Below are positions 591 to 32,194 of a stretch of 42,557 bases of DNA, in pieces (position 1 is the stretch's first letter; each line of letters begins with the position of its first letter). Made by a program: the position numbers and the translations under genes. Under the pieces are notes generated by a model, which was not told the origin of the DNA, ran no database searches, and saw only the letters and a list, made by a program, of their open reading frames with translations. The DNA is from Myxococcales bacterium (lineage in GTDB: Bacteria; Myxococcota_A; Polyangia; Polyangiales; JAFGIB01): NCBI GenBank assembly GCA_028817905.1, contig JAPPOR010000919.1, forward strand, positions 1 to 42,557, given 5' to 3'.

Positions 591-3500
591 AGGTATTGAT
601 GTTGGCGGCCGTCCAGCTGGTGGTCCGATCGTCGTACACCGTTAGGACCGGGTCGGTGATCGGTGTGCCACCGGCCCCGGTCACGGTCAGGCGCATGGTG
701 CCACTGGCGGCGGGCGTGAAGCTGTACACGGTGTCGGGCGCGGCGTCGCTGCCGCCGGCGCCGCAGGTGGCCTGGGTGTGGTCCGGGTTGCGACCGGCGG
801 TGTCGCCGGCCGAGACCGTCAGGATCGTGTCGTCGACGGTCAGGGCCTGGCTGGCGGTGGCGCTCTCGTCGCCCGCGGCCGCCGTGGCACTCTGGCTCTG
901 GCCCTGGAAGCTCAGGTTCGCGAGGTCGGCGCTGCGCACCTCCCAGCTGGTCGTCAGATCACCCAGATTGTTGGTGCTGGCAGCCGTGCGGTCGTCGTTT
1001 TCGAGCACGCTGGCGGCGGGCCGGCTGGCCGAGGGGATGCCGTCGAACAGGGCGACCGTGTGCGCGTTCGCGGTCCCGCTGGCGTCCACGGTGACCGTGG
1101 CGGCGCTGGCGAGCGTGAAGGTGTAGAACGCGTCGGCGCCGTTGGCGTCCGGAGAGCATGCGCTCACGCCGTCCTGGAACACCACCCCGCCCAGGTCGTC
1201 CTGCATCTCGGTCAGGTCCCCAAGGACGGTGTTGCTCAGGACGCTGATGCTGTGGGCATCGTTGAAGTACTCCGCGAACAGGCCCGTGGACGAGGAGCCA
1301 CTGCCAGAGGGCGCCGTCAATGTGTTGGTCGCGATGTATCCACGGCCGCCAGCGCCGCCGCCGCCGCCGCCCGTGCTGGTGTCCCCGCTGCCCGCGTTGC
1401 TGGTGGTGACCGAACCGGCGTTGTCGGACCAGCGGGCCCCGTTGCCGCCGTCGCCGCCGCCGCCGCCACCGGTGCCACCGGCCGCAACGCTGCTCGACGC
1501 GACCCGGCCGTTGTCACCGTGATCGCCGTCCGCTCCGATATACGCGCCCTCGCCGCCGCCACCACCGTGGACCGTGATCCAGCCGTTGTTGACGATGCTC
1601 AGGCCCTCGAGCAGGACGCCGCCGCCGCTGCCACCGCCGCCGCCACCGACCTCACCCTGGGTGCTGTAGTCACCACCCCGGCCGCCGCCACCGCTCGCGG
1701 ATACCGCACCGGTGCTGGCGATCGTAAGCGTACCGCCCGCGGACAGCTGCACGGCACCACCGCCAGCCCCCCCATTGGTGCGGGAACCGCTGTCGGCACC
1801 GCCCTGACCGCCACTGCAACCGCCCCGTAGGGGGACCAGGCTGGCGTTGCCCTCGCCGCTGGCGGTGCCGCCGCTGCCAGCGGGGGTCCCCGACACGAAG
1901 ATGATATAGTCGCCCTGGCCACCGCTGGCGCCGTTGGTTGAAAGGGCGCCGCCACCGCCACCACCGGCGCCGTCGCTATTGCCGGTGCCGTCGCCGCCAT
2001 TGCCGCCGGAGCAGCTCACGCCGCCGCCACCCGCGCCGGCCGTCTCGTAGCTCGAGCCGGCGTCGATCGTGCCCTCCACGTCGATGTCGCCGCGGGTCGC
2101 GATGATGACCGGACGGTTGCCGCGCAGGGTCAAGGTGCTGCCGTCTGCGATGCTGAAGGTGTCCGCGGCCAGCACCATGACATCCGGACCGCCGCTCTGG
2201 GAGCGCAGGTGGGCAATCGGGTAGACGCCGATGTTGCAACCGCTCCAGCTGTTCGTCTGGCTATTGTAGGTCACGGCGCCGCAGCTGATCGCCACCGTCT
2301 TGCTCAGGTCGACGGCTTCGATGTCGAAGTTCTGGCGGGTCGCGAGCGGCGACAGGCTCGAGTCGTAAACGACGCGCCCGCGACCGCCACCGCCGCCGCC
2401 GGCGCCGTTGTCGTTGCCGGTGGCACCATCGGTGGCCCCGTCGAAGCTGGTCGCTCCGTCGCCGCCGTCGAAGCCGTAGGCGCTGGCGCTGCCGCCCTGG
2501 GCGATGGTGCTGTCGGTATAACCGTCCTCGCCATCCTCGGGGCTGTCGGTCGCGGCCGCCTTACCATGCCCCTCGCCGCCGCCGCCGCCATTGGCGACCA
2601 CGTAGGCGCCGAGCGCCACGTCGACCGTGGGGGCCTCGAGCAGCACCGCGCCGCCGGAGCCGCCGCCGCCGCCCGCATCCTCATCGTGGCAGCCCTGGAG
2701 ACCCCCACCGCCGGAGACCGTGATGCGTCCGCTGGTGCTGACCGCGATGCTGGACACGGCGGTGATCTGGACCGCGCCGCCGCCCGCGCCGCCGTTGGCG
2801 TTGCAGTTGCCGGCCTGGGCGTTGCCAAGGCCCCCGCGTCCGCCGGCGCAACCGCCGCGCAAGGGCGAGAGGGTGTCGTCGCCCTCGGTCGCGCCGGCGC
2901 TTCCCGCCGGCACGCCGTCCTCGCCCGCGCCGCCCGTGCCACCGCTGGTTCCGTAGCTTCCGCCGCCGCCGCCGCCGGGGGTCTTGTCGTTGGTCGTGTA
3001 GTCCCCGCCGTCCCCACCGGTGCCGGAAGTGCAGGCGTAGTCGGTCACAACCGCCGGGTCGCCGTGCTCGCCGCCAGCGCCGGGCGTATCCTTGTCCGCG
3101 CTGGCGTCGATCAGGCCGTCGACCGTCACACTGCCACCGACCGCGAGGATCACCGGCCGAGTACCGATCAACCGCAGGGTGCTGCCGGAAGCCACCGACA
3201 GATCCATCAGGGGGAGCAGGACGACATCGGGGCCACCGGCCTGGCTGAGGATGACCGGGGTGGGATCCGCTCCGCACCAGTTGCTCAGCGAGACGGAACC
3301 ACTGGTGTCGACCGTCGTGGTGCCACAGTTGAGCGTGGAACTCGGGGCGCCCGTGAGCGAAATGTCACCCCAGCTGAAGTTGGTCGGATCGACGGTCGAG
3401 CCGCGCGTTGCGCCGTAGCCGCTGGCGATCTCGGCGTTGGTGAGGGGCATATCACCCGAGGCTCCGCCGTCGTACACGGAGAACACCACCGATCCGGTGC

Positions 3501-6500
3501 CGGCGGAGACGTCCTCGAGCGAGATGCGGGTGGTGCCGCCCTCGGCCGCCACGAACGAGTAGATCTGATCGCGACCCGCATCGCTGCTGCCGCAGCTGAG
3601 GGAAGACTCCGGGTAGATCGCCGTGCCCGAGGCGAGATTGGCGTTGTCGACCAGGAAGTTCGCGTCGTTGAGCTGAGTGGCGTAGTCGATCGACTCGGGG
3701 GTGTCGCCGGAGGCGCCAGTCCCGCTTCTGCTCGCAAGTGCCGCGGGGCTCAGGTTGGACAGATCCGCGACGCGCGCGAGCAGCCTTCCGTCGAGCGTTC
3801 CGAGCATATTGGGGGTCGCGACCGGATCGCCGAGCAGGCTGGCGGTGGCCGCGTTGGTGAAGCTGGCGCTGCCCTGGCTTGCGGCAGGCAAGCTCGTGTC
3901 CCCGTAGTGCATGGCGAGCCGCGTGCCGCCCTGGTGCAGGGCCTGGAGTTCGATCCACAGGCTGGCCGTCTGGCCGCCGGCGTTGAACGAGGCGATCCAG
4001 TAGCGCAGCTCGGTGCCCTGCTGGTCGTGGAAGCGTAGATAGTCGCTACTTCCGTAGTTGGCCCAGAAGTGCGCGTCGGCCGCCGTCAGTTGAAGGTTGA
4101 TGTGGGGCGTGGTCAGGGTGTCGGGCTGTCCGTAGACGACCTCCACCGTCTGCACGAAGCCAGCGCGCTGGCTGCCGGCCGCGGCGCGGGTGTCGTTCTC
4201 GGCCACCCGCGGCAGGGCCCCGGGGGCGAACTCGCAAATGAACGCCCGGGTCGCCGTGCAGACGTTGTCGTTCCAGAGCCCGGTGCCTGACAGGAGCTCG
4301 GCACAATCCTCATTAGAACCCGCATCGTTGGGCTCGCCGCCCGACCAGGACGCGAACTTACCGGACTGGGCGCTGCCGCCGCTGGCCCCCTGCCAGAAGG
4401 GGTCGCTGCCCTGTTCCTGGCCGCCGCGCGCGAACACCCAGTCGCCCTCCGCGCCCTGGTCGTTGGCGCCGAACCAGGCACTGCCCACACCAAGAGCCTG
4501 TGCAAGCCCCTGGGCGAACGTGTTCTCATCCGCGTCTTCGATCGCCATGAGCTCGGCGCCCACGCTCCGGCACGCCGCCGCTGCGACGCTCCAGGACACC
4601 GTGTCGCTGCAAGGCCAGTACACGTTGCCAGCGTAGTAGCGTGGGCCTGTGGTCGTGCAGCCGGTGGGCGCCTCGACGGGGCGCCCGTGGCCAACATTGT
4701 TGTCCTCGGCCGACCACAGGGCGATCGCGTGGGCGAACTCGGTGTCCGCGGCGCTGACCGTGACCTGGGCCGGCGCATCGAGGGTGAAGCGACCGACCAC
4801 GTCGGGGGAGTTGTTGTTGACAGTGCAGGCCCCGCCGTCCGCGTAGGCGGTTGTGGTGTGCAGGTCGGATAGCGATACGATGTCGCCCGTCAGCTCCGCC
4901 CCGAGCGGGTTGGCCGCGAAATCGACGGCGGGCGCCCTGTCGAAGCTGTTGGGCAGTTCGTACTCGCACAACCACACATGCGGGGTGCTGCACCCGATGT
5001 CGACCCATTGGCCACTGCTTGCACCCGCGTAGAGGCAGTCGTTGCCGGCCGTGTTGGGCTCGCCGCTCGCAAAGGCGGTGTACAGCCCGCCCACGCTGGA
5101 TCCCGGCCCCGACCCTTGCCAGGCCTGCGCCCCGCCGTCGATGTCGCCGTTCCGGGCCCAGCGCCAGGTTCCGGTGGTGGCCAGATCGTTGAGACCGAGG
5201 AAGGTGTCAGCACCGTTGACGCCGGTCAACCAGGCGTCTTCGGCAGCGCTGTCGACCTGGACGAGATAGCCTCCGCTCTGCTCGCACAGGTTGTGCGCAT
5301 CGGTGTAGTCGCGGGTGTCAGTGCAGTAGTAGTAGCCGTGGCCAGCGTAGGTAGACCAGCTGCAGCTGGTTCCCGGCGACGCGGGCCGGGTGAAGTCCAT
5401 CTCCGACAGCGCAAGGTCGGCCTGCGTCAGGGGTGCGCCAAGTGCACCGGTATCCTCGAAGAAGGCCAGCACGCCGGTAAAGTTCGGGGCCTCGTCCCCG
5501 AGGGTGACGTTCACGGTCGTGTTGCTGCTGGCGGTGAACTTGAAGATCATGTCGCCGCCGTCGGCATCGCTGGCGCACATCTGCGGATAGGTGGCCGACA
5601 CCGCCCCCGGGTCGACTTCGCACACGAAGCGGTTGTTGTCGCTGCAGGCCCCGGCCGCCCAGGTCCCGTCGGTCGCCGACATGTAGCCGCAATCGTCGGC
5701 CGCGACGTCCGGCTGGTTGCCACTGGTCCACTGCGCGTAGCGGCCGCCGACCAGATAGCCGTTGGCGTCCGTGTCGCCGCCGGACCAGAACTGGGGCCCT
5801 GCGCCGGCCACGCCGCCGGCGCTCCAGCGCCATGCACCGTCTACGGTCTGATCGTTGGCGCCGATCCAAGTATTGCCGGTGCCATAGGCGCCATTGATGA
5901 GTCCGTAGACGAATGCGTTCTCGGCTGCGCTGTCGATCTGGACCAGATCGCCCCCGAGGGCGACACAGCGGCTCTGGGCGCCGGCCCAGCTGGTCGCCGA
6001 GTAGCAGCGGTAGTACTGCTTGGCTTCAAACGTCCCGGTCTCGCAACCGGCCGCCGACCCGGCCGGCGCGGCCGTGGTCGCTCCCGACAGGCGCCGCTGG
6101 CGATCATAGGCGTCACCCAGGTCCTGAAGCGCGTCGGTGTTGCCAAAGTCGGTGCCCGCGGCCAAGTCAACCGTGGTCAGGGCATCGACGGTGGCGGAGT
6201 TCATGGCAAGCGTACGGGTCAGCGAGGTCCCGTCGATGGACGCGATGACGTTCTCATAGGCCTGTTCGTCATCGTTGAGATAGGTCGCCGGTGCGCTGGC
6301 CGCATACTTGCGCACGTACACGTAGTCCCAGCGCGTATCGGTCGCTTCACTGTCGCCGCCGTTGTCGTAGCGCTGGCCGAGCACCAGCGGCGCCGTTGCG
6401 GGCGAGAGGCTTGCCTCGTAGTCCCATGCGAGCGAGCCGGTGCTTCGCTCGAACTTCTGGCCCGTGACCGTGCCCGCCCCGGTCGCAGCCACCTCCACGT

Positions 6501-24387: not shown

Positions 24388-25191
24388 ATGAGGAAACAGC
24401 TACTCATCGCATGCATGCTCGCTCTCTGTGGCACCGTGATCGGCTGTGCCGCCGCCACGACGCCCCCGGACCCGGCCACAGCGGAGCCGGACGCTCCCTC
24501 TGGCGATGGCCCCCCACCGACCCCGGACCTCGGACAGTATCGGGCGACCGAGCCCACAATGGCGCAAGCCGGTACGGGTGCTGGGCCGGATCTGCAAAGC
24601 GAGGAACGCGGAGCGGCAGACCAACGTCCTCGCGGAGCAGAGGAACAGCCAACGGCCCCCACAGCGGAGGAGCAGGAGACATCCGCGGCCGCTGAGGAGA
24701 GTCCGGACGACCACCCGCGGGACGCGCAGGAAACAGCAGACCCAACCGAGGTTGAGCGGGCGACAACGATGGCCGCCGTGGAGGAGAACCTGGCGCGCCT
24801 GCGGTCCCTCAACCTGTTCGAAGTCGGCGGGCTCGTCGCGACCGTACCGGGGGAAGCGTACTCGTGTGCGTACAATCAACCCTGTCCTGGCGACGAGGCC
24901 GACACCGCGCGCGCCGTACAAAGCGCCCGCCTCGCGGAGCTGGTGGTAGCCGGGGAGGAGGTCCAGTCGATGACGGGACTCGACACGCCCGACCGGACCC
25001 CACAGGAACATCTGCAAGCACTGCAACGACTGTCGATCGTCCGCATCGGGGCGCTGGTCATCGACGAACCAGCCACCTCAGGCTTCTGCTATAATCTACC
25101 TTGCCCGGAGGACAAGGCTGAAGCTGAGGCGAAGAACGCCAGGCGCGCCGCCGAGCTCTCGGAACTCGTCCACCTCACCGAGGACCTCTGA
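24388..25191 (+). CDS. Lipoprotein with low-complexity linker and two C-terminal Cys-motif repeats (SCAYNQPCPGDE / GFCYNLPCPEDK)
   Basis: Lipobox MRKQLLIACMLALCGTVIGCAAA; RBS AGGAGG about 10 nt upstream; two aligned repeats LRSLNLFEVGGLVATVPGEAYSCAYNQPCPGDEADTARAVQSARLAEL and LQRLSIVRIGALVIDEPATSGFCYNLPCPEDKAEAEAKNARRAAEL. Confidence 0.85.
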   Translation: MRKQLLIACMLALCGTVIGCAAATTPPDPATAEPDAPSGDGPPPTPDLGQYRATEPTMAQAGTGAGPDLQSEERGAADQRPRGAEEQPTAPTAEEQETSAAAEESPDDHPRDAQETADPTEVERATTMAAVEENLARLRSLNLFEVGGLVATVPGEAYSCAYNQPCPGDEADTARAVQSARLAELVVAGEEVQSMTGLDTPDRTPQEHLQALQRLSIVRIGALVIDEPATSGFCYNLPCPEDKAEAEAKNARRAAELSELVHLTEDL

Positions 25192-25205
25192 CCGCATTTC
25201 CCGAC

Positions 25206-26999
25206 ATGGGGCCGGGCCCACGGCTGGGCGCGGGCCTTGACCTACCGTGGGGTCCACGCGGCTTTGTGCGCGATCCGAATGGGCGTGACCACGTGGCCAA
25301 GCACGTGCGGACCTTTGTGGCCGCACCGCCAGCCCACGGCAGGTCGTGGAGCCATCTGTTCTTCTCGCTGCAACCGAGGGACCGTTCGCTTCCCGACGTC
25401 GCACAGTACCGCGACGCTTGGGACCACCTGATGGAGTGCCTGCCAGAAGGCGCAGCGCGGGCGCTTCACACCACGGCCCTGGACCTTGGCGCGCCGCACC
25501 CGAAGAATCGGACACGGCTCCTTTCGCTCGTCAATGCAATGGTCGACCGCTACGGGCTTCGTTGGATTAATGAAGATCTCGGCCTGTGGACGCTAGGGGG
25601 AAAGCCGCTGCCCTACCCTTTGCCACCGTACCTGACAGAATCCGGACTCCAGGCGGCCATCGACAATACTCGGCTGTGTCAGCGGGAGCTGTCGGTCCCC
25701 CTGTTGGTGGAGTTCCCTGGATTCGCCAAAGGGGTCAGCCTTCCACTGGGAGATCTGGACGCATACGACTTCTTCCGGAGACTGATCGAGGAGACCGACG
25801 CCCCGTGCACGCTCGACGTGGGCCACCTGATGTCGTGGCGTTTCCTGCGTGGACATCGCGGGGAAGCACTGCTTGCTGAACTCGAACGTCTCCCCCTGTG
25901 GCATTGTTTCGAGATCCACCTGTCCGGCTGCCTCATCGACAACGATGCGTTCTTCGACCTGCACCATGGCGTGCTTCTCCCGGAGCAACTCGAGCTCCTA
26001 CAGCGGCTCCTGCCGCTCTGCCCCAACGTGCGAGCTGTCACCTTCGAGGACCCGGCGCTACGCGACGACGGCACCCTGGAGCCCCGCTGCGCAGAGAGCC
26101 TAGCTGCACTGGCTGAGATCGTTCCCGAGCCCTCGGGCGGACCGCGCTCGGTTTCGGTTCCAGCCGACAGAGAAGCAGCCACCGAGCACCCCTGCGCCGT
26201 TCGGCGAAACGAGCGACCGCTCCGAACTGCGCGCGACCCACGACACAGGCCGGCGAACCTGCAGGAGGCGATGCGTCTCGACGATCACCTGAGTCGTTTG
26301 GTCTGGGACATACGTACGCGGGAATCGTTCCTGGTGTCGGGGCAACTCTCTGCTGCAAACGACCCAGAGCGTCGCCATCTTGCGCAAATCGACGCCGAAG
26401 AGCTGCGGTCGCTCGCTCGGCAGGCGACCGGTGCCCTACTCGCGAGGGCACAACCGGGTGTGGGAAGCCTCAAGGAGTGCTTCGGAGATGCCTTCGCAGC
26501 GTGGCGCAAGCGGCACCCCGCCGATCGTGACTTCCAGCACCTGGCAGAAACGTTTTGCGCGAACCATGGCCAGGAGGTGCGGGAGGGTATGACGGTGGAG
26601 CGCGGCAGTTCCCTGGAGCAGGCCTTTGCCGAGTTCGCACAGACGGCAGGGCTGCTCGCCCCCCGGGCGGCGGCCCTGGCGCTCGCCAAAGCCGTCGCAC
26701 GGGCATGGCTCGTCTCACAACCATTGGCATTCACGATCCCAAGCAGCTTTCAGCGCTGCGAGACCGGGGTGTTTGCGGTCATCGACGGCGACCCCCCGTT
26801 TCTGGTTGCGGCCATCGGAGGACAACTTCTCGAGGGGCCGATCACGGAGCTGATTGCGGCATTGTTGACCGGTACACCCTCTGAACAGGCAGCGCGGGAT
26901 CAGCAGGTGGACAACGAGGTGGCCCTGGCCACTGCCGCCGAGCTGCGCCAGCTCGGCCTTCTCCCCCTTCTCCCCCTTCGAACACGCCCGACCGCGTGA
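25206..26999 (+). CDS. DUF692/MNIO-family-like (multinuclear non-heme iron oxidase) protein with an extra C-terminal domain
   Basis: Ordered DUF692-like motifs: WINEDLGLW, YPLPPYLTESGLQAAIDNTRLCQRELSVPLLVEFPGF, DAPCTLDVGHLMSW, CFEIHLSGC, DLHHGVLLPEQLELLQRLL, AVTFEDP; followed by ~290 aa of a second domain. Confidence 0.75.
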   Translation: MGPGPRLGAGLDLPWGPRGFVRDPNGRDHVAKHVRTFVAAPPAHGRSWSHLFFSLQPRDRSLPDVAQYRDAWDHLMECLPEGAARALHTTALDLGAPHPKNRTRLLSLVNAMVDRYGLRWINEDLGLWTLGGKPLPYPLPPYLTESGLQAAIDNTRLCQRELSVPLLVEFPGFAKGVSLPLGDLDAYDFFRRLIEETDAPCTLDVGHLMSWRFLRGHRGEALLAELERLPLWHCFEIHLSGCLIDNDAFFDLHHGVLLPEQLELLQRLLPLCPNVRAVTFEDPALRDDGTLEPRCAESLAALAEIVPEPSGGPRSVSVPADREAATEHPCAVRRNERPLRTARDPRHRPANLQEAMRLDDHLSRLVWDIRTRESFLVSGQLSAANDPERRHLAQIDAEELRSLARQATGALLARAQPGVGSLKECFGDAFAAWRKRHPADRDFQHLAETFCANHGQEVREGMTVERGSSLEQAFAEFAQTAGLLAPRAAALALAKAVARAWLVSQPLAFTIPSSFQRCETGVFAVIDGDPPFLVAAIGGQLLEGPITELIAALLTGTPSEQAARDQQVDNEVALATAAELRQLGLLPLLPLRTRPTA

Positions 27000-27077: not shown

Positions 27078-27971
27078 ATGGAGAATCAAGTCTCTCTCGA
27101 CGGGCTGCGTTGTTTCGCCGCCGCGGCCGACCATCTCAACTTTCGACGGGCTGCCGCGGCGGTCGGCCTTTCTCCACAGGCGTTTAGTGCCCGGATCGCC
27201 CAACTGGAAGAGGCACTCGAGCTCGCGCTATTCGTTCGTACTACACGCAAGGTCACACTGACGCCCGAGGGCAACCAGCTACAGGCGCACACGCGCCGCA
27301 TCCTGCAGCTGGTCGCCAACTGCTCCTCGGTCGCCCGGGGCCAGAGCCAAGAAGCCGTCGAGCTCTGCATCGGTACGCGCTTCGAGCTCGGGCGTAGCTG
27401 GCTGTCACCCGCGCTCCAACGTCTGGCGGCCAACAGTCCTCAGTGGCGCCTGCACCTGAGTTTCGGCGACGCACCGGCCCTGCTTCAGCGGCTGCTCGCA
27501 CATGAGATCGACTGCGTGGTGTCGAGCAGCCGTATCGAGAACATGCCCGTGGTCTATGACTCCCTACACGACGAGACCTATCTGTTCGTCGGCGCACCGG
27601 CGCTATTGCGCAAGACACCCTTCGACAAGCCCAAGGATGCGGCTGCCCACACGCTGCTCGATGAGCGACGAGACCTTCCCTTGTTTCGATACCTGCAAGA
27701 CCGGGCGCCGGTACGGCGCTGGCCATTTCGCGGTCATCGGTACCTGGGCACGATCAGCGTGATTCGCGACTGGACGGTCGAAGGTCACGGTGTCGCAGTG
27801 CTGCCAGAGTACCTCGTGCGACCCGACCTGAAAGCCAAGCGCCTGGTTCGCATCCTGCCCCGGATGCCGCTTCAAGCCGACCAATTCCGACTGCTATGGC
27901 GCATGGGTCATCCGCGCGAGCCGCTGCTGCGGCAGCTCGCCGAAGCATTGCGTGGTGTCCCCCTACGCTAG
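27078..27971 (+). CDS. LysR-family transcriptional regulator
   Basis: MENQVSLDGLRCFAAAADHLNFRRAAAAVGLSPQAFSARIAQLEEALELALFVRTTRKVTLTPEGNQL (wHTH) plus substrate-binding-like domain. In-frame ATGs also at 27063 and 27027. Confidence 0.92.
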   Translation: MENQVSLDGLRCFAAAADHLNFRRAAAAVGLSPQAFSARIAQLEEALELALFVRTTRKVTLTPEGNQLQAHTRRILQLVANCSSVARGQSQEAVELCIGTRFELGRSWLSPALQRLAANSPQWRLHLSFGDAPALLQRLLAHEIDCVVSSSRIENMPVVYDSLHDETYLFVGAPALLRKTPFDKPKDAAAHTLLDERRDLPLFRYLQDRAPVRRWPFRGHRYLGTISVIRDWTVEGHGVAVLPEYLVRPDLKAKRLVRILPRMPLQADQFRLLWRMGHPREPLLRQLAEALRGVPLR

Positions 27972-28014: not shown

Positions 28015-28112
28015 CGGTGAGGTGGTCACTCCCGGGAGCCCTCCGTACATGCAAGGAGAGCACGCTTAGAAGCCGCCTTGGAAGGCACGCTATCCTTGCC
28101 GGCGTGACTGCG

Positions 28113-30020
28113 ATGACCACCTCTGCGCTCGCGAGAGGCGCCTGCCTCGTCGCCCTTTTGCCGATCGTTGCATGCAGCTGCGATCCCGACCGCCTGGGTT
28201 CCGAAAGGCCCGATGCGGGGACCGTAGCCGGCGGGGATGGCGATGGCGACGGCCCGCCCGCGCACTGCACCCATGGCAATACGCTGTGCGACGGGGACAT
28301 GGCTCGCATCTGCGACGGTCGGGGCGGGGTCGAGACCGTCGCGTGCGGTGAACAGGGCAAGGTGTGCGTCAACTCGGCGACCAGCCCCACAACGGGCGAG
28401 TTCCTCCCACTGGGATGCGTGGATTGCGTCCCGGGAACCTCGCGATGTGAAGGCGGTATGGGCGAGTACTGCGCGGAGGACGGCTCCGGCTTCATCCGTT
28501 TCGAGTGCGATGCGATGCAGGGGATGGAGTGCACGGAACAAGGTTGCACAGGTCGGTGCGCCCCCCCGGAAGCGAAGCACAGCTACATCGGATGCGACTA
28601 CTACCCAACGGTCACGCTCAACCCTGTCTGGCGCGGCTTCGACTTTGCCGTCTCGGTCGCCAATGCGGGGGACTCCAACGCCAGCGTGATCGTGACGCGG
28701 GGCGATGAGGCCGTTGCCACGGCGAACGTCGCGGTCGGTGGCATCGAGGTCATTGTGTTGCCGTGGAACCTGGCGCTCAAGGGCGGCGATGTCGACGCCT
28801 GTCAGGTAACGCCCGACCCGGGCGCGAGTAGGCTCGAAGCAGAGGGCGCCTACCGCTTGCGCAGTGACCAGCCCGTAACGGTCCATCAGTTCAATCCACT
28901 CTCCTATCAGCTAGCCGATGACGATGGGGACGCGCCCGCCGGCTGTCCACTCGGTGTCGAGTGCAGCCCGGAATACGGCACGAGCGACTGTCTTTCCTAC
29001 TCCAACGACGCGTCGCTCCTGCTCCCCGCCACTTCTCTCACCGGAGACTACACGGTCATGTCGTGGCCGTCGGCCGGCAACACTGCCTCCTTCTACGCCA
29101 TCACCGCCACCGAGGATGGAACCGAGGTCACAGTTTCGGGCAGCGCAGCCATCGAGGCCGGGGGCGGACTGAGCCAGCAAGGCAACGGTACCGTCGCCAT
29201 GCAGCGCGGCGATGTGCTGCAGGTGGTCGCGCAGCGCACAGCAGCGGGCGACGACGCGACCATCAGCGACGTCAGCGGCACGCACATTCACGCCAACAAG
29301 CCCATCCAGGTTGTGGGCGGAAACTCGTGTGCATTCGTGCCAGACGTCTCCGCAGGCGAATGCGACCACATCGAGCAGGCCCTGTTCCCCTCCCAGATCC
29401 TCGGCGACGAATATGTGGTCAGCTACCCCGCCGCGGTCGCCTCCGTGTCCCCCCATATCCTACGTGTATCGGCGATCTTCGACGACACGGAAATCGCGCT
29501 TGACCCACCGATCGTCCCGGCCTTCTCCATGTCACGAAGCGACCCGCCCCGAACGATCCGCATCGGAGCCTATGAGATGGGGGAACAGCGCGAGCCGATG
29601 GATGTGCACGTTGCCGCTACCCGGCCCATCGTCGTGGCCCAGTACATGCAGGGTCTCGAGTCTGTCCCGAGTGGCTCAGGCGACCCTTCGATGGCACTCG
29701 CGGTTCCGGTGGCCCAGTACCGAACCAACTATGTCTTCACCGCGCCCGAAACCTACGACACCAACTTCATCAACGTGGTCGGACCACCGGACGCGCAACT
29801 CGTACTCGACGGTGAGCCTGTGCGAAGCCAAGGGACAGCCGCTGGTAGTTCGGGCTTCGCCGTCTTTCGCATCGAACTTCCTCACAGCACCGCCGGCTCG
29901 CACACGCTCGAGGCGAATGCTCCGGTTGGCTTGCTGGTCTATGGCTACGGCCGCTTCACCAGCTACATGTATCCGGGTGGTCTGGACCTTCAGCCCATCA
30001 CGCAGATCGGTCCCCAATAG
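28113..30020 (+). CDS. Lipoprotein with IgGFc-binding-protein N-terminal-like region
   Basis: MTTSALARGACLVALLPIVACSCDPD (lipobox-like); YYPTVTLNPVWRGFDFAVSVANAGDSNASVIVTRGDEAVATANVAVGGIEVIVLPWN...SLLLPATSLTGDYTVMSWPSAGNTASFYAITATEDGTEVTVSGSAAIEAGGG...LQVVAQRT...SGTHIHANKPIQVVGGNSC. Start moved in from 28017. Confidence 0.8.
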   Translation: MTTSALARGACLVALLPIVACSCDPDRLGSERPDAGTVAGGDGDGDGPPAHCTHGNTLCDGDMARICDGRGGVETVACGEQGKVCVNSATSPTTGEFLPLGCVDCVPGTSRCEGGMGEYCAEDGSGFIRFECDAMQGMECTEQGCTGRCAPPEAKHSYIGCDYYPTVTLNPVWRGFDFAVSVANAGDSNASVIVTRGDEAVATANVAVGGIEVIVLPWNLALKGGDVDACQVTPDPGASRLEAEGAYRLRSDQPVTVHQFNPLSYQLADDDGDAPAGCPLGVECSPEYGTSDCLSYSNDASLLLPATSLTGDYTVMSWPSAGNTASFYAITATEDGTEVTVSGSAAIEAGGGLSQQGNGTVAMQRGDVLQVVAQRTAAGDDATISDVSGTHIHANKPIQVVGGNSCAFVPDVSAGECDHIEQALFPSQILGDEYVVSYPAAVASVSPHILRVSAIFDDTEIALDPPIVPAFSMSRSDPPRTIRIGAYEMGEQREPMDVHVAATRPIVVAQYMQGLESVPSGSGDPSMALAVPVAQYRTNYVFTAPETYDTNFINVVGPPDAQLVLDGEPVRSQGTAAGSSGFAVFRIELPHSTAGSHTLEANAPVGLLVYGYGRFTSYMYPGGLDLQPITQIGPQ

Positions 30021-30139
30021 TCGTCCTTTGGGAAGCGCTGTGGGTCATCGTCCGTTGCAGTCCCACCCATTTTTCCTCGCCGCTCATCCCTGAGAGTCGC
30101 GCTGTGCTAGCCTGAAAGCCGCGCCAACGATCGGCGAGC

Positions 30140-32194
30140 ATGGGCTGTCGATGCCGTCGTGCGCACAGTAGGGGTTGTCTCTTGGGGTTGTATCGGAGCG
30201 CTTTGCCATTGGTCGCGAGTCTGTTGCTGCTCGCGGGCTGTTCGTCCACCAACCGCGCCGATGGCGTGCTCTCACCGAGTGGCCGGGACGCCTCGACCGA
30301 GGAAGGTCAGGATCCCCAGGGGTCGAGTCCGATCGACAACGGCCGGGGAGGCGCCGGTGGATCGCAAAGCGAAGGCAACGGGACGCGAACGAACCTGCCT
30401 GGTAGAGACCCCGGCAACCTACTTGGCGACGGCACCTCCGGTGTGGGCGGCGGTCGCGTGCTCGATGGAACACCGTTCTGTGCGCCCACTACGTGCGAGG
30501 ACCGCGGAGCCGTGTGCGGAACCATCTCGGATGGCTGCGGCGGTGTCATGGTGTGCGGCACCTGTGAAGGTGGGCGGATTTGCCACGCGGCAAGCCACAC
30601 CTGTACTGAGCTGACCGACCTGTGCGAGAACGCCGGGCTCGAATGCGGCGCAACCGTCGACGCCTGCGGCGCACCGATCGCGTGCGGCACGTGCGGCGGC
30701 GGCGAGGTCTGCAACGCGACCACTGGTACCTGCGGCCCATGCCAGCCACGCACGTGCGAAGATGTGGAGGGCGCCTGCGGCGAGATTCCGGACGGCTGCG
30801 GTGCCACGCTGACCTGCGACAGCTGCGGAGACGGGGAGGCCTGCGACGCCATCGTCAAGCACTGTCTGCCGTGTGAACCCACGACCTGTGAAGAAGCGGC
30901 CGTTGAGTGCGGCACCATCTCCGATGGCTGCGGGGCCACCCTCGACTGCGATGAGGAGTTGGGCGGCTGTGGGGACGGGCTGGCCTGCGTCAGCAACCGC
31001 TGTAGGCCCGAAAGCTTGCCGCTCGAATGCGACCTGCAAATGGCAAACTGCGGGGAAATCAGCCACAGCTGCAGTGGTGAAGCCGTGGACTGCGGCGTCT
31101 GCCCCCAGGGGGAGATATGCCAGGCAAATCGCTGTGAAGTATGCGTCCCCAGTACGTGTGACGAGCTTGAGCTCGAGTGCGGCAGCGGCGACGATGGCTG
31201 TGGAGGAACCCTCAACTGCGGCAATTGCCCGCGCATCGACGAGGAAGGAAACCGCCTGGTCTGCCACAACCACCAATGCTGCACTCCCCAGAGTTGTCCC
31301 GAAGGGGCGTGCGGTGAGATCGCCGATGGCTGTGGGGGAACGCTTTCCTGCGGAAGCTGCCCCGCGACGGAGTCCGGCCAGGAACAGGTATGCGGCCTCG
31401 TCACGGCCAATGTCTGCACGCCTTGTACACGGCGCACATGTGATCCCGGCGCCTGCGGACGGGTTAGCGGCGGCGACGGCTGCGGCGGCTCTCTCAACTG
31501 CGGCAGCTGCCCCCAGGACGACGTCGGCGAAGGCGAACGCAACGTCTGCAACCGCTCCGCCAACGTATGCGAGCCATGCACGCTCACCAAGACCACCTGC
31601 GATGCCGGAGAATGCGGACGTATCCGCGATGGGTGCGGGGGGCGCATCGACTGCGGGGGCTGTGTGGACGGCGAGGTCTGTGGCCTGGTGAGCGCCAACG
31701 TGTGTACGCCGTGCACGCCGACCAAGACCAGCTGCGACGACGACGACTGCGGCATGATCAGCGATGGCTGTGCTGGATACATCGACTGCGGGGGATGCAC
31801 CGGAGGCAAGCAGTGTGGACTGGTAACCGCCAATGTCTGCAGTGTCTGCACACCTCAGGCCTGCTCGTCCGACAAGGAATGCGGGACGACCTCGAACGGC
31901 TGCGGCGGCACGGCAGACTGCGGAACGTGCGAGGACGCCGGCGACGTCTGCATCGCCAACCAATGCTGCAAGCCCAAGACGTGCAACGATCCGGGAGTGG
32001 GCTGCGACGCCACGGACGACGGCTGCGGCGGCCCCCTCGATTGCTCCTGCCAGACGGGCCTCGTGTGCGACGCCAGCGGCGGATGCTGCTCACCCAAGAC
32101 GTGCATGGATGTGTGCATGGACGGCGACTACGATGGCGACGACGGGTGTGGCAACGATCTCCAGTGCAGCGATTGCAGCGCACCGCCACAGTGA
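30140..32194 (+). CDS. Cys-rich tandem-repeat lipoprotein (~13 repeats)
   Basis: Hydrophobic leader and lipobox LPLVASLLLLAGCSS; repeats such as CEPTTCEEAAVECGTISDGCGATLDC and CTPTKTSCDDDDCGMISDGCAGYIDCGGCTGGKQCGLVTANVCSVC. Confidence 0.88.
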   Translation: MGCRCRRAHSRGCLLGLYRSALPLVASLLLLAGCSSTNRADGVLSPSGRDASTEEGQDPQGSSPIDNGRGGAGGSQSEGNGTRTNLPGRDPGNLLGDGTSGVGGGRVLDGTPFCAPTTCEDRGAVCGTISDGCGGVMVCGTCEGGRICHAASHTCTELTDLCENAGLECGATVDACGAPIACGTCGGGEVCNATTGTCGPCQPRTCEDVEGACGEIPDGCGATLTCDSCGDGEACDAIVKHCLPCEPTTCEEAAVECGTISDGCGATLDCDEELGGCGDGLACVSNRCRPESLPLECDLQMANCGEISHSCSGEAVDCGVCPQGEICQANRCEVCVPSTCDELELECGSGDDGCGGTLNCGNCPRIDEEGNRLVCHNHQCCTPQSCPEGACGEIADGCGGTLSCGSCPATESGQEQVCGLVTANVCTPCTRRTCDPGACGRVSGGDGCGGSLNCGSCPQDDVGEGERNVCNRSANVCEPCTLTKTTCDAGECGRIRDGCGGRIDCGGCVDGEVCGLVSANVCTPCTPTKTSCDDDDCGMISDGCAGYIDCGGCTGGKQCGLVTANVCSVCTPQACSSDKECGTTSNGCGGTADCGTCEDAGDVCIANQCCKPKTCNDPGVGCDATDDGCGGPLDCSCQTGLVCDASGGCCSPKTCMDVCMDGDYDGDDGCGNDLQCSDCSAPPQ
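30476..32190 (+). repeat. About 13 tandem Cys-rich repeats of 35-50 aa at the protein level
   Basis: Consensus by eye: C.P.TC.....CG.ISDGCGGTL.CG.C..GE.C......C..C. Confidence 0.85.

What the first reader, a model, noticed from the sequence alone, without database searches (positions are those of the whole stretch)
24388..26999. Candidate RiPP-like system: duplicated CYNxPCP lipoprotein plus adjacent DUF692/MNIO-like enzyme
The lipoprotein stop (25191) and enzyme start (25206) are 15 bp apart, indicating co-transcription. Characterised MNIO/DUF692 enzymes modify Cys or other residues in ribosomal peptides encoded next to them, including exported ones. The upstream product carries two closely conserved C-terminal Cys motifs (SCAYNQPCPGDE and GFCYNLPCPEDK) with few other Cys outside the leader, a plausible modification site. 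An exported lipoprotein substrate with a long Pro/Glu-rich spacer would be a new substrate class.
Basis: partly seen in the sequence, partly recalled or inferred. Interest (0 to 1): 0.85.

Follow-up and report, generated by a model that had tools for sequence, protein, structure and literature searches.

The report
Lipoprotein paired with an MNIO enzyme
An uncultured myxobacterium-like bacterium carries a membrane-anchored protein with two copies of a small cysteine-tyrosine loop, almost always found beside one iron-dependent peptide-modifying enzyme, so the loop is very probably chemically altered by that enzyme before export; it looks like an undescribed member of a recently recognised kind of modified lipoprotein.

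Summary
The window encodes a 267-aa lipobox protein with two homologous C-terminal repeats, each with a Cys-Tyr loop (CAYNQPC, CYNLPC). Fourteen bp downstream lies a 597-aa MNIO (PF05114/DUF692) carrying a second, partner-like domain. The main prediction, conserved pairing, was tested and passed. The same MNIO subfamily occurs in at least 14 other genomes (Polyangium, other Myxococcota, one Bdellovibrionota MAG). In 13 of the 14 loci the gene directly upstream is an exported protein with this Cys-Tyr loop. In the 14th the adjacent copy is a 44-aa remnant and an intact copy lies on another contig. Among 377 Myxococcota genomes the lipoprotein profile hits 10, all of which carry the MNIO. Only Cys234-Tyr235 is invariant in 14 aligned precursors. 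Most relatives encode the partner domain as a separate gene, so the window enzyme is a fusion. An orthologous LysR regulator sits beside four loci. The substrate and partner matched no Pfam or NCBIfam family where scanned. MNIO-modified lipoproteins ("DAG-RiPPs", PMC12636315) and large protein substrates are already known, so this is a new variant of a known kind, not a new class. Chemistry and function are unknown and need mass spectrometry.

The parts
24388..25191 (+). Putative MNIO substrate: lipoprotein, 267 aa, no Pfam/NCBIfam match
24388..24447 (+). Signal peptide with lipobox VIGC; Cys20 is the predicted lipid-bearing residue
   Evidence: read from the sequence; lipobox-type Cys kept in 13 of 14 aligned precursors incl. 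the window; SignalP could not be run
24448..24741 (+). Disordered Pro/Glu/Ala-rich linker (aa 21-118), much shorter in relatives
   Evidence: AlphaFold pLDDT mostly about 46-59; alignment A3
24742..24969 (+). Repeat 1 (aa 119-194): helix-strand-Cys loop-helix
   Evidence: homologous to repeat 2
24865..24885 (+). Motif 1, CAYNQPC (aa 160-166), candidate modification site
25000..25176 (+). Repeat 2 (aa 205-263): helix-strand-Cys loop-helix, pLDDT about 95
25087..25104 (+). Motif 2, CYNLPC (aa 234-239); Cys234-Tyr235 are the only invariant columns in 14 precursors; main candidate modification site
25206..26999 (+). MNIO fused to a partner-like domain, 597 aa
25221..26120 (+). MNIO (DUF692) TIM-barrel domain, aa 6-305; putative metal ligands H88 D124 E169 D204 H207 H238 D251 H253 E281 identical in 15/15
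26253..26975 (+). C-terminal domain, aa 350-590: helical part, then strands plus three helices (RRE-like order); separate gene in most relatives; inferred substrate-binding partner
27078..27971 (+). LysR-family regulator, orthologue found beside the trio in three other loci; probable regulator of the operon

Best explanation
A small operon for maturing an exported protein. The lipoprotein is made in the cytosol, and its two helix-strand-loop-helix repeats present Cys-Tyr loops. The fused C-terminal domain of the enzyme binds the substrate. The iron TIM barrel then oxidatively modifies, most likely, the first Cys of each Cys-Tyr motif. The product is exported by Sec, lipidated at Cys20, and sits at the membrane with the modified loops on a flexible stalk, where a metal- or redox-related role is the most likely use. 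The LysR gene controls expression. Shown here: lipobox and motif anatomy, internal duplication, enzyme family and fold, conserved linkage, invariance of Cys-Tyr, partner split in relatives, LysR co-occurrence. Inferred: that the lipoprotein is the substrate, that Cys is the residue modified, that the C-terminal domain is the partner, and export after modification. Speculative: the final function.
For: MNIO by Pfam and fold with all putative metal ligands kept in 15/15. A Cys-Tyr precursor lies directly upstream of 13 of 14 related MNIO genes, and its profile hits only genomes that carry the MNIO, 10/10 against 0 of the other 367 (MNIO list). One Myxococcota MAG has two complementary broken loci: intact enzyme with a 44-aa precursor remnant, and intact precursor with a cut-off start of the enzyme, as expected if both proteins are needed and can act in trans. 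Only Cys234 and Tyr235 are invariant, in a loop. The partner-like domain is separate in most relatives and fused here. Precedent: DybA/DybH and NedA lipoproteins are MNIO-modified, and the ChrH-type C-terminal domain can be fused or separate (PMC12636315).
Against: No modification has been shown. The C-terminal domain has no detectable sequence relation to DUF2063 partners (hhalign probability 0.4%; no Pfam match), so its partner role rests on position, fold order and analogy. An Asp (D124) stands where 3BWW has a His in the metal region, and His207 where HvfB appears to have Asn, so the cluster may differ from MbnB/HvfB. No metal-handling genes (DoxX, transporters) were recognised in the neighbourhoods, though flanks were not annotated systematically. 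Motif 1 is lost in two relatives.
Confidence: 0.82

Rival explanations
1. The enzyme modifies the invariant Tyr (for example hydroxylation), or crosslinks Cys and Tyr, with Cys acting as an iron-binding anchor.
For: Tyr235 is as invariant as Cys234 and the residue before Cys varies; MNIO-containing clusters are linked to ortho-tyrosine formation on aromatic residues (PMC12257519).
Against: [quoted passage not shown] invariance of a neighbour may only reflect recognition.
Confidence: 0.2
2. The lipoprotein is not a substrate: its Cys pairs form ordinary disulfides or a metal site in the periplasm, and the MNIO modifies another, unrecognised peptide.
For: A further Cys pair in relatives is kept or lost together in 14 of 15 (both in 10, neither in 4, one exception), which suggests structural disulfides in this fold (alignment A3; L075).
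Against: That pair is distinct from the Cys-Tyr motifs; linkage of the lipoprotein with the MNIO is near-perfect; the second motif Cys is missing in two relatives, which argues against a simple disulfide. Other small ORFs next to the MNIO were not searched for systematically.
Confidence: 0.13
3. The lipoprotein is a carrier or partner protein for the enzyme rather than its substrate.
For: Direct gene adjacency would be seen for a partner too.
Against: It carries an export signal while the enzyme shows none; a separate partner-like domain already exists; the loop is what is conserved.
Confidence: 0.05

Closest known systems
DAG-RiPPs / RiPP-lipoprotein hybrids (DybA-DybH, NedA-NedBC; PMC12636315)
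   Same: Lipobox precursor directly upstream of an MNIO; Cys motif; simple gene cluster; extra C-terminal domain on the MNIO, separate in some lineages
   Different: No CPxCGxG or EGKCG motif; the precursor is a folded, duplicated domain, 152-267 aa in most members and mostly outside the 50-160 aa range of that mining; the ChrH NCBIfam model barely matches (3 of 15, best E 1.4e-5; cut-off 600 bits)
CxxxxC precursor family (PMC12452194; a CxxxxC lipoprotein cluster X is also reported in PMC12636315)
   Same: Signal peptide and a Cys-x4-Cys motif (CYNLPC fits)
   Different: Described with DUF2063 partners and DoxX, often Lactamase_B_2; here no partner matches DUF2063, Cys spacing varies from CxxxC upward, and Cys-Tyr is the constant part. 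The published alignment could not be opened, so identity is not fully excluded
Bufferins and oxazolins
   Same: Sec-exported precursor plus MNIO plus partner
   Different: No Buf1/Buf2/EGKCG motif; BufB model 37 bits against a cut-off of 310
Aminopyruvatide MNIO ApyH
   Same: Best NCBIfam match of the window enzyme, and matched by all 15 members
   Different: 57.7 bits against a cut-off of 400, matched only over aa 135-281
PME-type 2 partner proteins (PMC12452194)
   Same: Follows or is fused to the MNIO, similar length, helical part then RRE-like part, no DUF2063 signature
   Different: That survey ties PME-type 2 to precursors without signal peptides; here the precursor is exported and the partner is fused

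Membership tests
MNIO / DUF692 (PF05114) | Profile match above the curated cut-off | tested here: met
   50.9 bits, cut-off 25
MNIO / DUF692 (PF05114) | TIM barrel like MbnB/TglH/HS_1138 | tested here: met
   Foldseek hits 1-9, E 1e-9 to 5e-8
MNIO / DUF692 (PF05114) | Conserved multi-iron ligand set | tested here: inconclusive
   Nine candidate ligands invariant in 15/15, but Asp for His at 124 and His for Asn at 207 relative to 3BWW/HvfB; a second myxobacterial MNIO clade shares these
MNIO / DUF692 (PF05114) | Iron- and O2-dependent oxidation of a peptide | not testable with these tools
   needs protein chemistry
DAG-RiPP / RiPP-lipoprotein hybrid | Lipoprotein signal (SPII) on the precursor | tested here: inconclusive
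   Lipobox VIGC read by eye; lipobox-type Cys in 13/14 aligned precursors incl. the window; SignalP not available
DAG-RiPP / RiPP-lipoprotein hybrid | Conserved genetic pairing of precursor with a modifying enzyme | tested here: met
   13/14 related loci adjacent, co-occurrence 10/10
DAG-RiPP / RiPP-lipoprotein hybrid | Covalent modification plus lipidation | not testable with these tools
   needs MS
ChrH subfamily | CPxCGxG motif in the precursor | tested here: not met
   absent from all 14 precursors
CxxxxC precursor family | DUF2063 (PME-type 1) partner | tested here: not met
   no DUF2063 hit in 13 partner domains at E <= 1; hhalign against three partners of the same genome that carry DUF2063 or NGO1945_C: 0.4%
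CxxxxC precursor family | Match to the published CxxxxC profile | not tested
   profile is in a supplement that could not be opened
Bufferin / oxazolin | DUF2282, Buf_6/12Cys or EGKCG precursor signature; BufB/HvfB cut-off | tested here: not met
   no such family match for the precursors; BufB 37.2 bits vs 310, HvfB 17.9 vs 360
PME-type 2 partner | Structural similarity to NGO1945/TglI | tested here: inconclusive
   domain order of the model fits; no credible sequence match in PDB; the Foldseek rows printed are for the barrel

The most novel reading that the evidence does not exclude
The Cys-Tyr loop of a folded, duplicated lipoprotein domain receives a modification not seen in other MNIO products (involving Cys and the adjacent Tyr), making a protein-borne, membrane-displayed cofactor or metal site rather than a released peptide.
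Probability: 0.3. Interest if true: 0.75.

Novelty: new variant of a known kind. Interest (0 to 1): 0.55.

Why it matters
It adds an apparently undescribed, well-bounded substrate family to the MNIO enzymes, with a precise and cheap prediction (a mass change on Cys-Tyr). The substrate is predicted to be a folded protein domain instead of a short tail, and the enzyme carries its likely partner on the same chain, which makes reconstitution simple. It also lies in named Polyangium strains, so the native product can be sought directly.

Tried and rejected
Single-sequence scan of genome contigs with the enzyme found no relatives; the alignment query did. The CxYNxPCP DNA-pattern hit in G303 lies in an unrelated reading frame with no MNIO seen nearby, rejected. 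MNIO hits in G026 are weak and the one locus read in full lacked this precursor. A frameshift origin of the 597-aa enzyme was considered; fused versions with conserved C-terminal sequence in three other loci (L057, L061, L062) argue against it. PDB searches with the partner profile, the lipoprotein profile and the lipoprotein fold gave nothing credible. The partner as a DUF2063 protein was rejected.

Full report
What is there. The window is contig C1059 of an 11.1 Mb genome whose order-level relatives include Polyangium. ORF 24388-25191 encodes a 267-aa protein with a lipobox signal (VIGC, Cys20), a disordered linker and two C-terminal motifs, CAYNQPC and CYNLPC. ORF 25206-26999, 14 bp downstream, encodes 597 aa matching PF05114 (MNIO/DUF692) at 50.9 bits against a cut-off of 25. 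NCBIfam models for ApyH, BufB and HvfB match far below their cut-offs. A LysR gene follows at 27078-27971 (start chosen by comparison with relatives). Three other MNIOs in the same genome are strong, canonical matches, one above the BufB equivalog cut-off and two just short of BufB or HvfB, so this is a divergent fourth one.

Conserved pairing. Six same-family genomes searched with the enzyme gave no match; among the 57 relatives the only other matches were weak ones in G026. Across 377 Myxococcota genomes a group of strong hits appeared, and an alignment query in genome contigs gave 14 named loci: Polyangium fumosum, Polyangium sp. 6x1 and 15x6, several Deltaproteobacteria/Myxococcales/Polyangiaceae MAGs, and one Bdellovibrionales MAG. 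In 13 of 14 the gene directly upstream on the same strand is an exported protein with the Cys-Tyr motif. The Bdellovibrionales version has one repeat and an ordinary secretion-type signal. In the fourteenth (L062/G332) the enzyme is preceded by a 44-aa remnant keeping only the signal and the last residues, while another contig of that genome holds an intact precursor followed by the first codons of a cut-off enzyme. A lipoprotein profile hits 10 of 377 genomes, all with the MNIO subfamily. G388 holds only a decayed copy. Several of the ten G genomes are the same records as the named loci, so the two counts are not independent. The enzyme subfamily separates from seven other myxobacterial MNIOs with 100/100 support.

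The substrate. The two repeats are homologous (39% identity, E 8e-11). AlphaFold gives a confident C-terminal domain (mostly pLDDT 86-97): helix, strand, Cys loop, helix, twice; loop 1 is uncertain (55-59), loop 2 confident. No PDB fold matches. Across 14 precursors only Cys234 and Tyr235 are invariant; spacing to the second Cys varies and that Cys is absent in L058 and L059. A further Cys pair found in most relatives is present or absent together in 14 of 15 proteins (counting L075), L058 being the exception; relatedness was not corrected for. It is absent here. It is probably a structural disulfide, separate from the motif.

The enzyme. The model (pLDDT 86, pTM 0.84) has an N-terminal TIM barrel whose nine best PDB matches are TglHI, MbnABC/MbnBC and 3bww. 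Nine candidate metal ligands are identical in all 15 members. Compared with 3BWW one His is Asp (D124), and HvfB's Asn175 position is His207 by my reading of the alignments; seven MNIOs of another myxobacterial clade share both, so this is not decay. The C-terminal domain is a separate overlapping or adjacent gene in most relatives and fused in the window, L057, L061 and L062. The tree groups L057 with L062, while the window's nearest relatives are split, so more than one fusion is likely but not proven. The domain has no Pfam match and no credible PDB sequence match and no profile similarity to partners from the same genome that carry DUF2063 or NGO1945_C; only its order (helices, strands, three helices) resembles known MNIO partners.

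Regulator. LysR orthologues (238-253 bits) lie divergently upstream in L053, L057 and L063 and downstream in the window; weaker LysR hits in L059 and L061 look unrelated.

How it most likely works. Cytosolic modification of the Cys-Tyr loops by the fused MNIO, then Sec export and lipidation. Linkage, anatomy and conservation are shown; the reaction, partner role and final use are inferred. The nearest experimental precedent is DybA/DybH and NedA (PMC12636315), where MNIO-modified peptides are lipidated, and MelA1, a 34-kDa substrate with a separately encoded C-terminal enzyme domain.

Novelty. MNIO substrates with signal peptides, lipoprotein signals and large size are all published (PMC12452194, PMC12636315). 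I found no description of this family in the papers read, but supplements could not be opened and the CxxxxC family and lipoprotein cluster X remain possible overlaps; the absence of a DUF2063 partner argues against the former. New variant of a known kind.

Limits. MAG contigs may be misassigned (one locus is labelled Rhodobacterales in its record but was drawn as Myxococcota in the phylum search). Signal peptides were judged by eye. Gene calls in relatives came from a simple script and start codons are approximate.

Noticed in passing
L082 (G000:C610) 3122-6283: Elsewhere in the same genome a BufA2-type bufferin precursor, a BufB MNIO and a DUF2063 partner sit next to a YcaO cyclodehydratase: an MNIO plus YcaO combination.
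   Followed up: partly
L061 4977-6797: In this MNIO-partner fusion the two domains are joined by a long His/Glu/Gln-rich linker (EHEHEH...HQHQHQ), a possible metal-binding stretch.
   Followed up: no
L026, L027, L030, L032, L033, L037, L041: A second myxobacterial MNIO clade with signature CGDAGLWH and ENP shares the Asp/His metal-site changes; its substrates were not examined.
   Followed up: no
L076 (G332:C414) and L049 (G332:C41): Two complementary broken copies of the cluster in one genome: one keeps the enzyme, the other the precursor.
   Followed up: yes
L051/L077 (G388:C20): Remnant of the cluster in a relative of Polyangium: precursor motif and enzyme truncated, partner reduced to a short stretch.
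   Followed up: partly
window 28017-32194: Two large Cys-rich proteins with export-like N-termini downstream, the first with an IgGFc_binding domain, the second rich in repeated Cys/Gly motifs.
   Followed up: no
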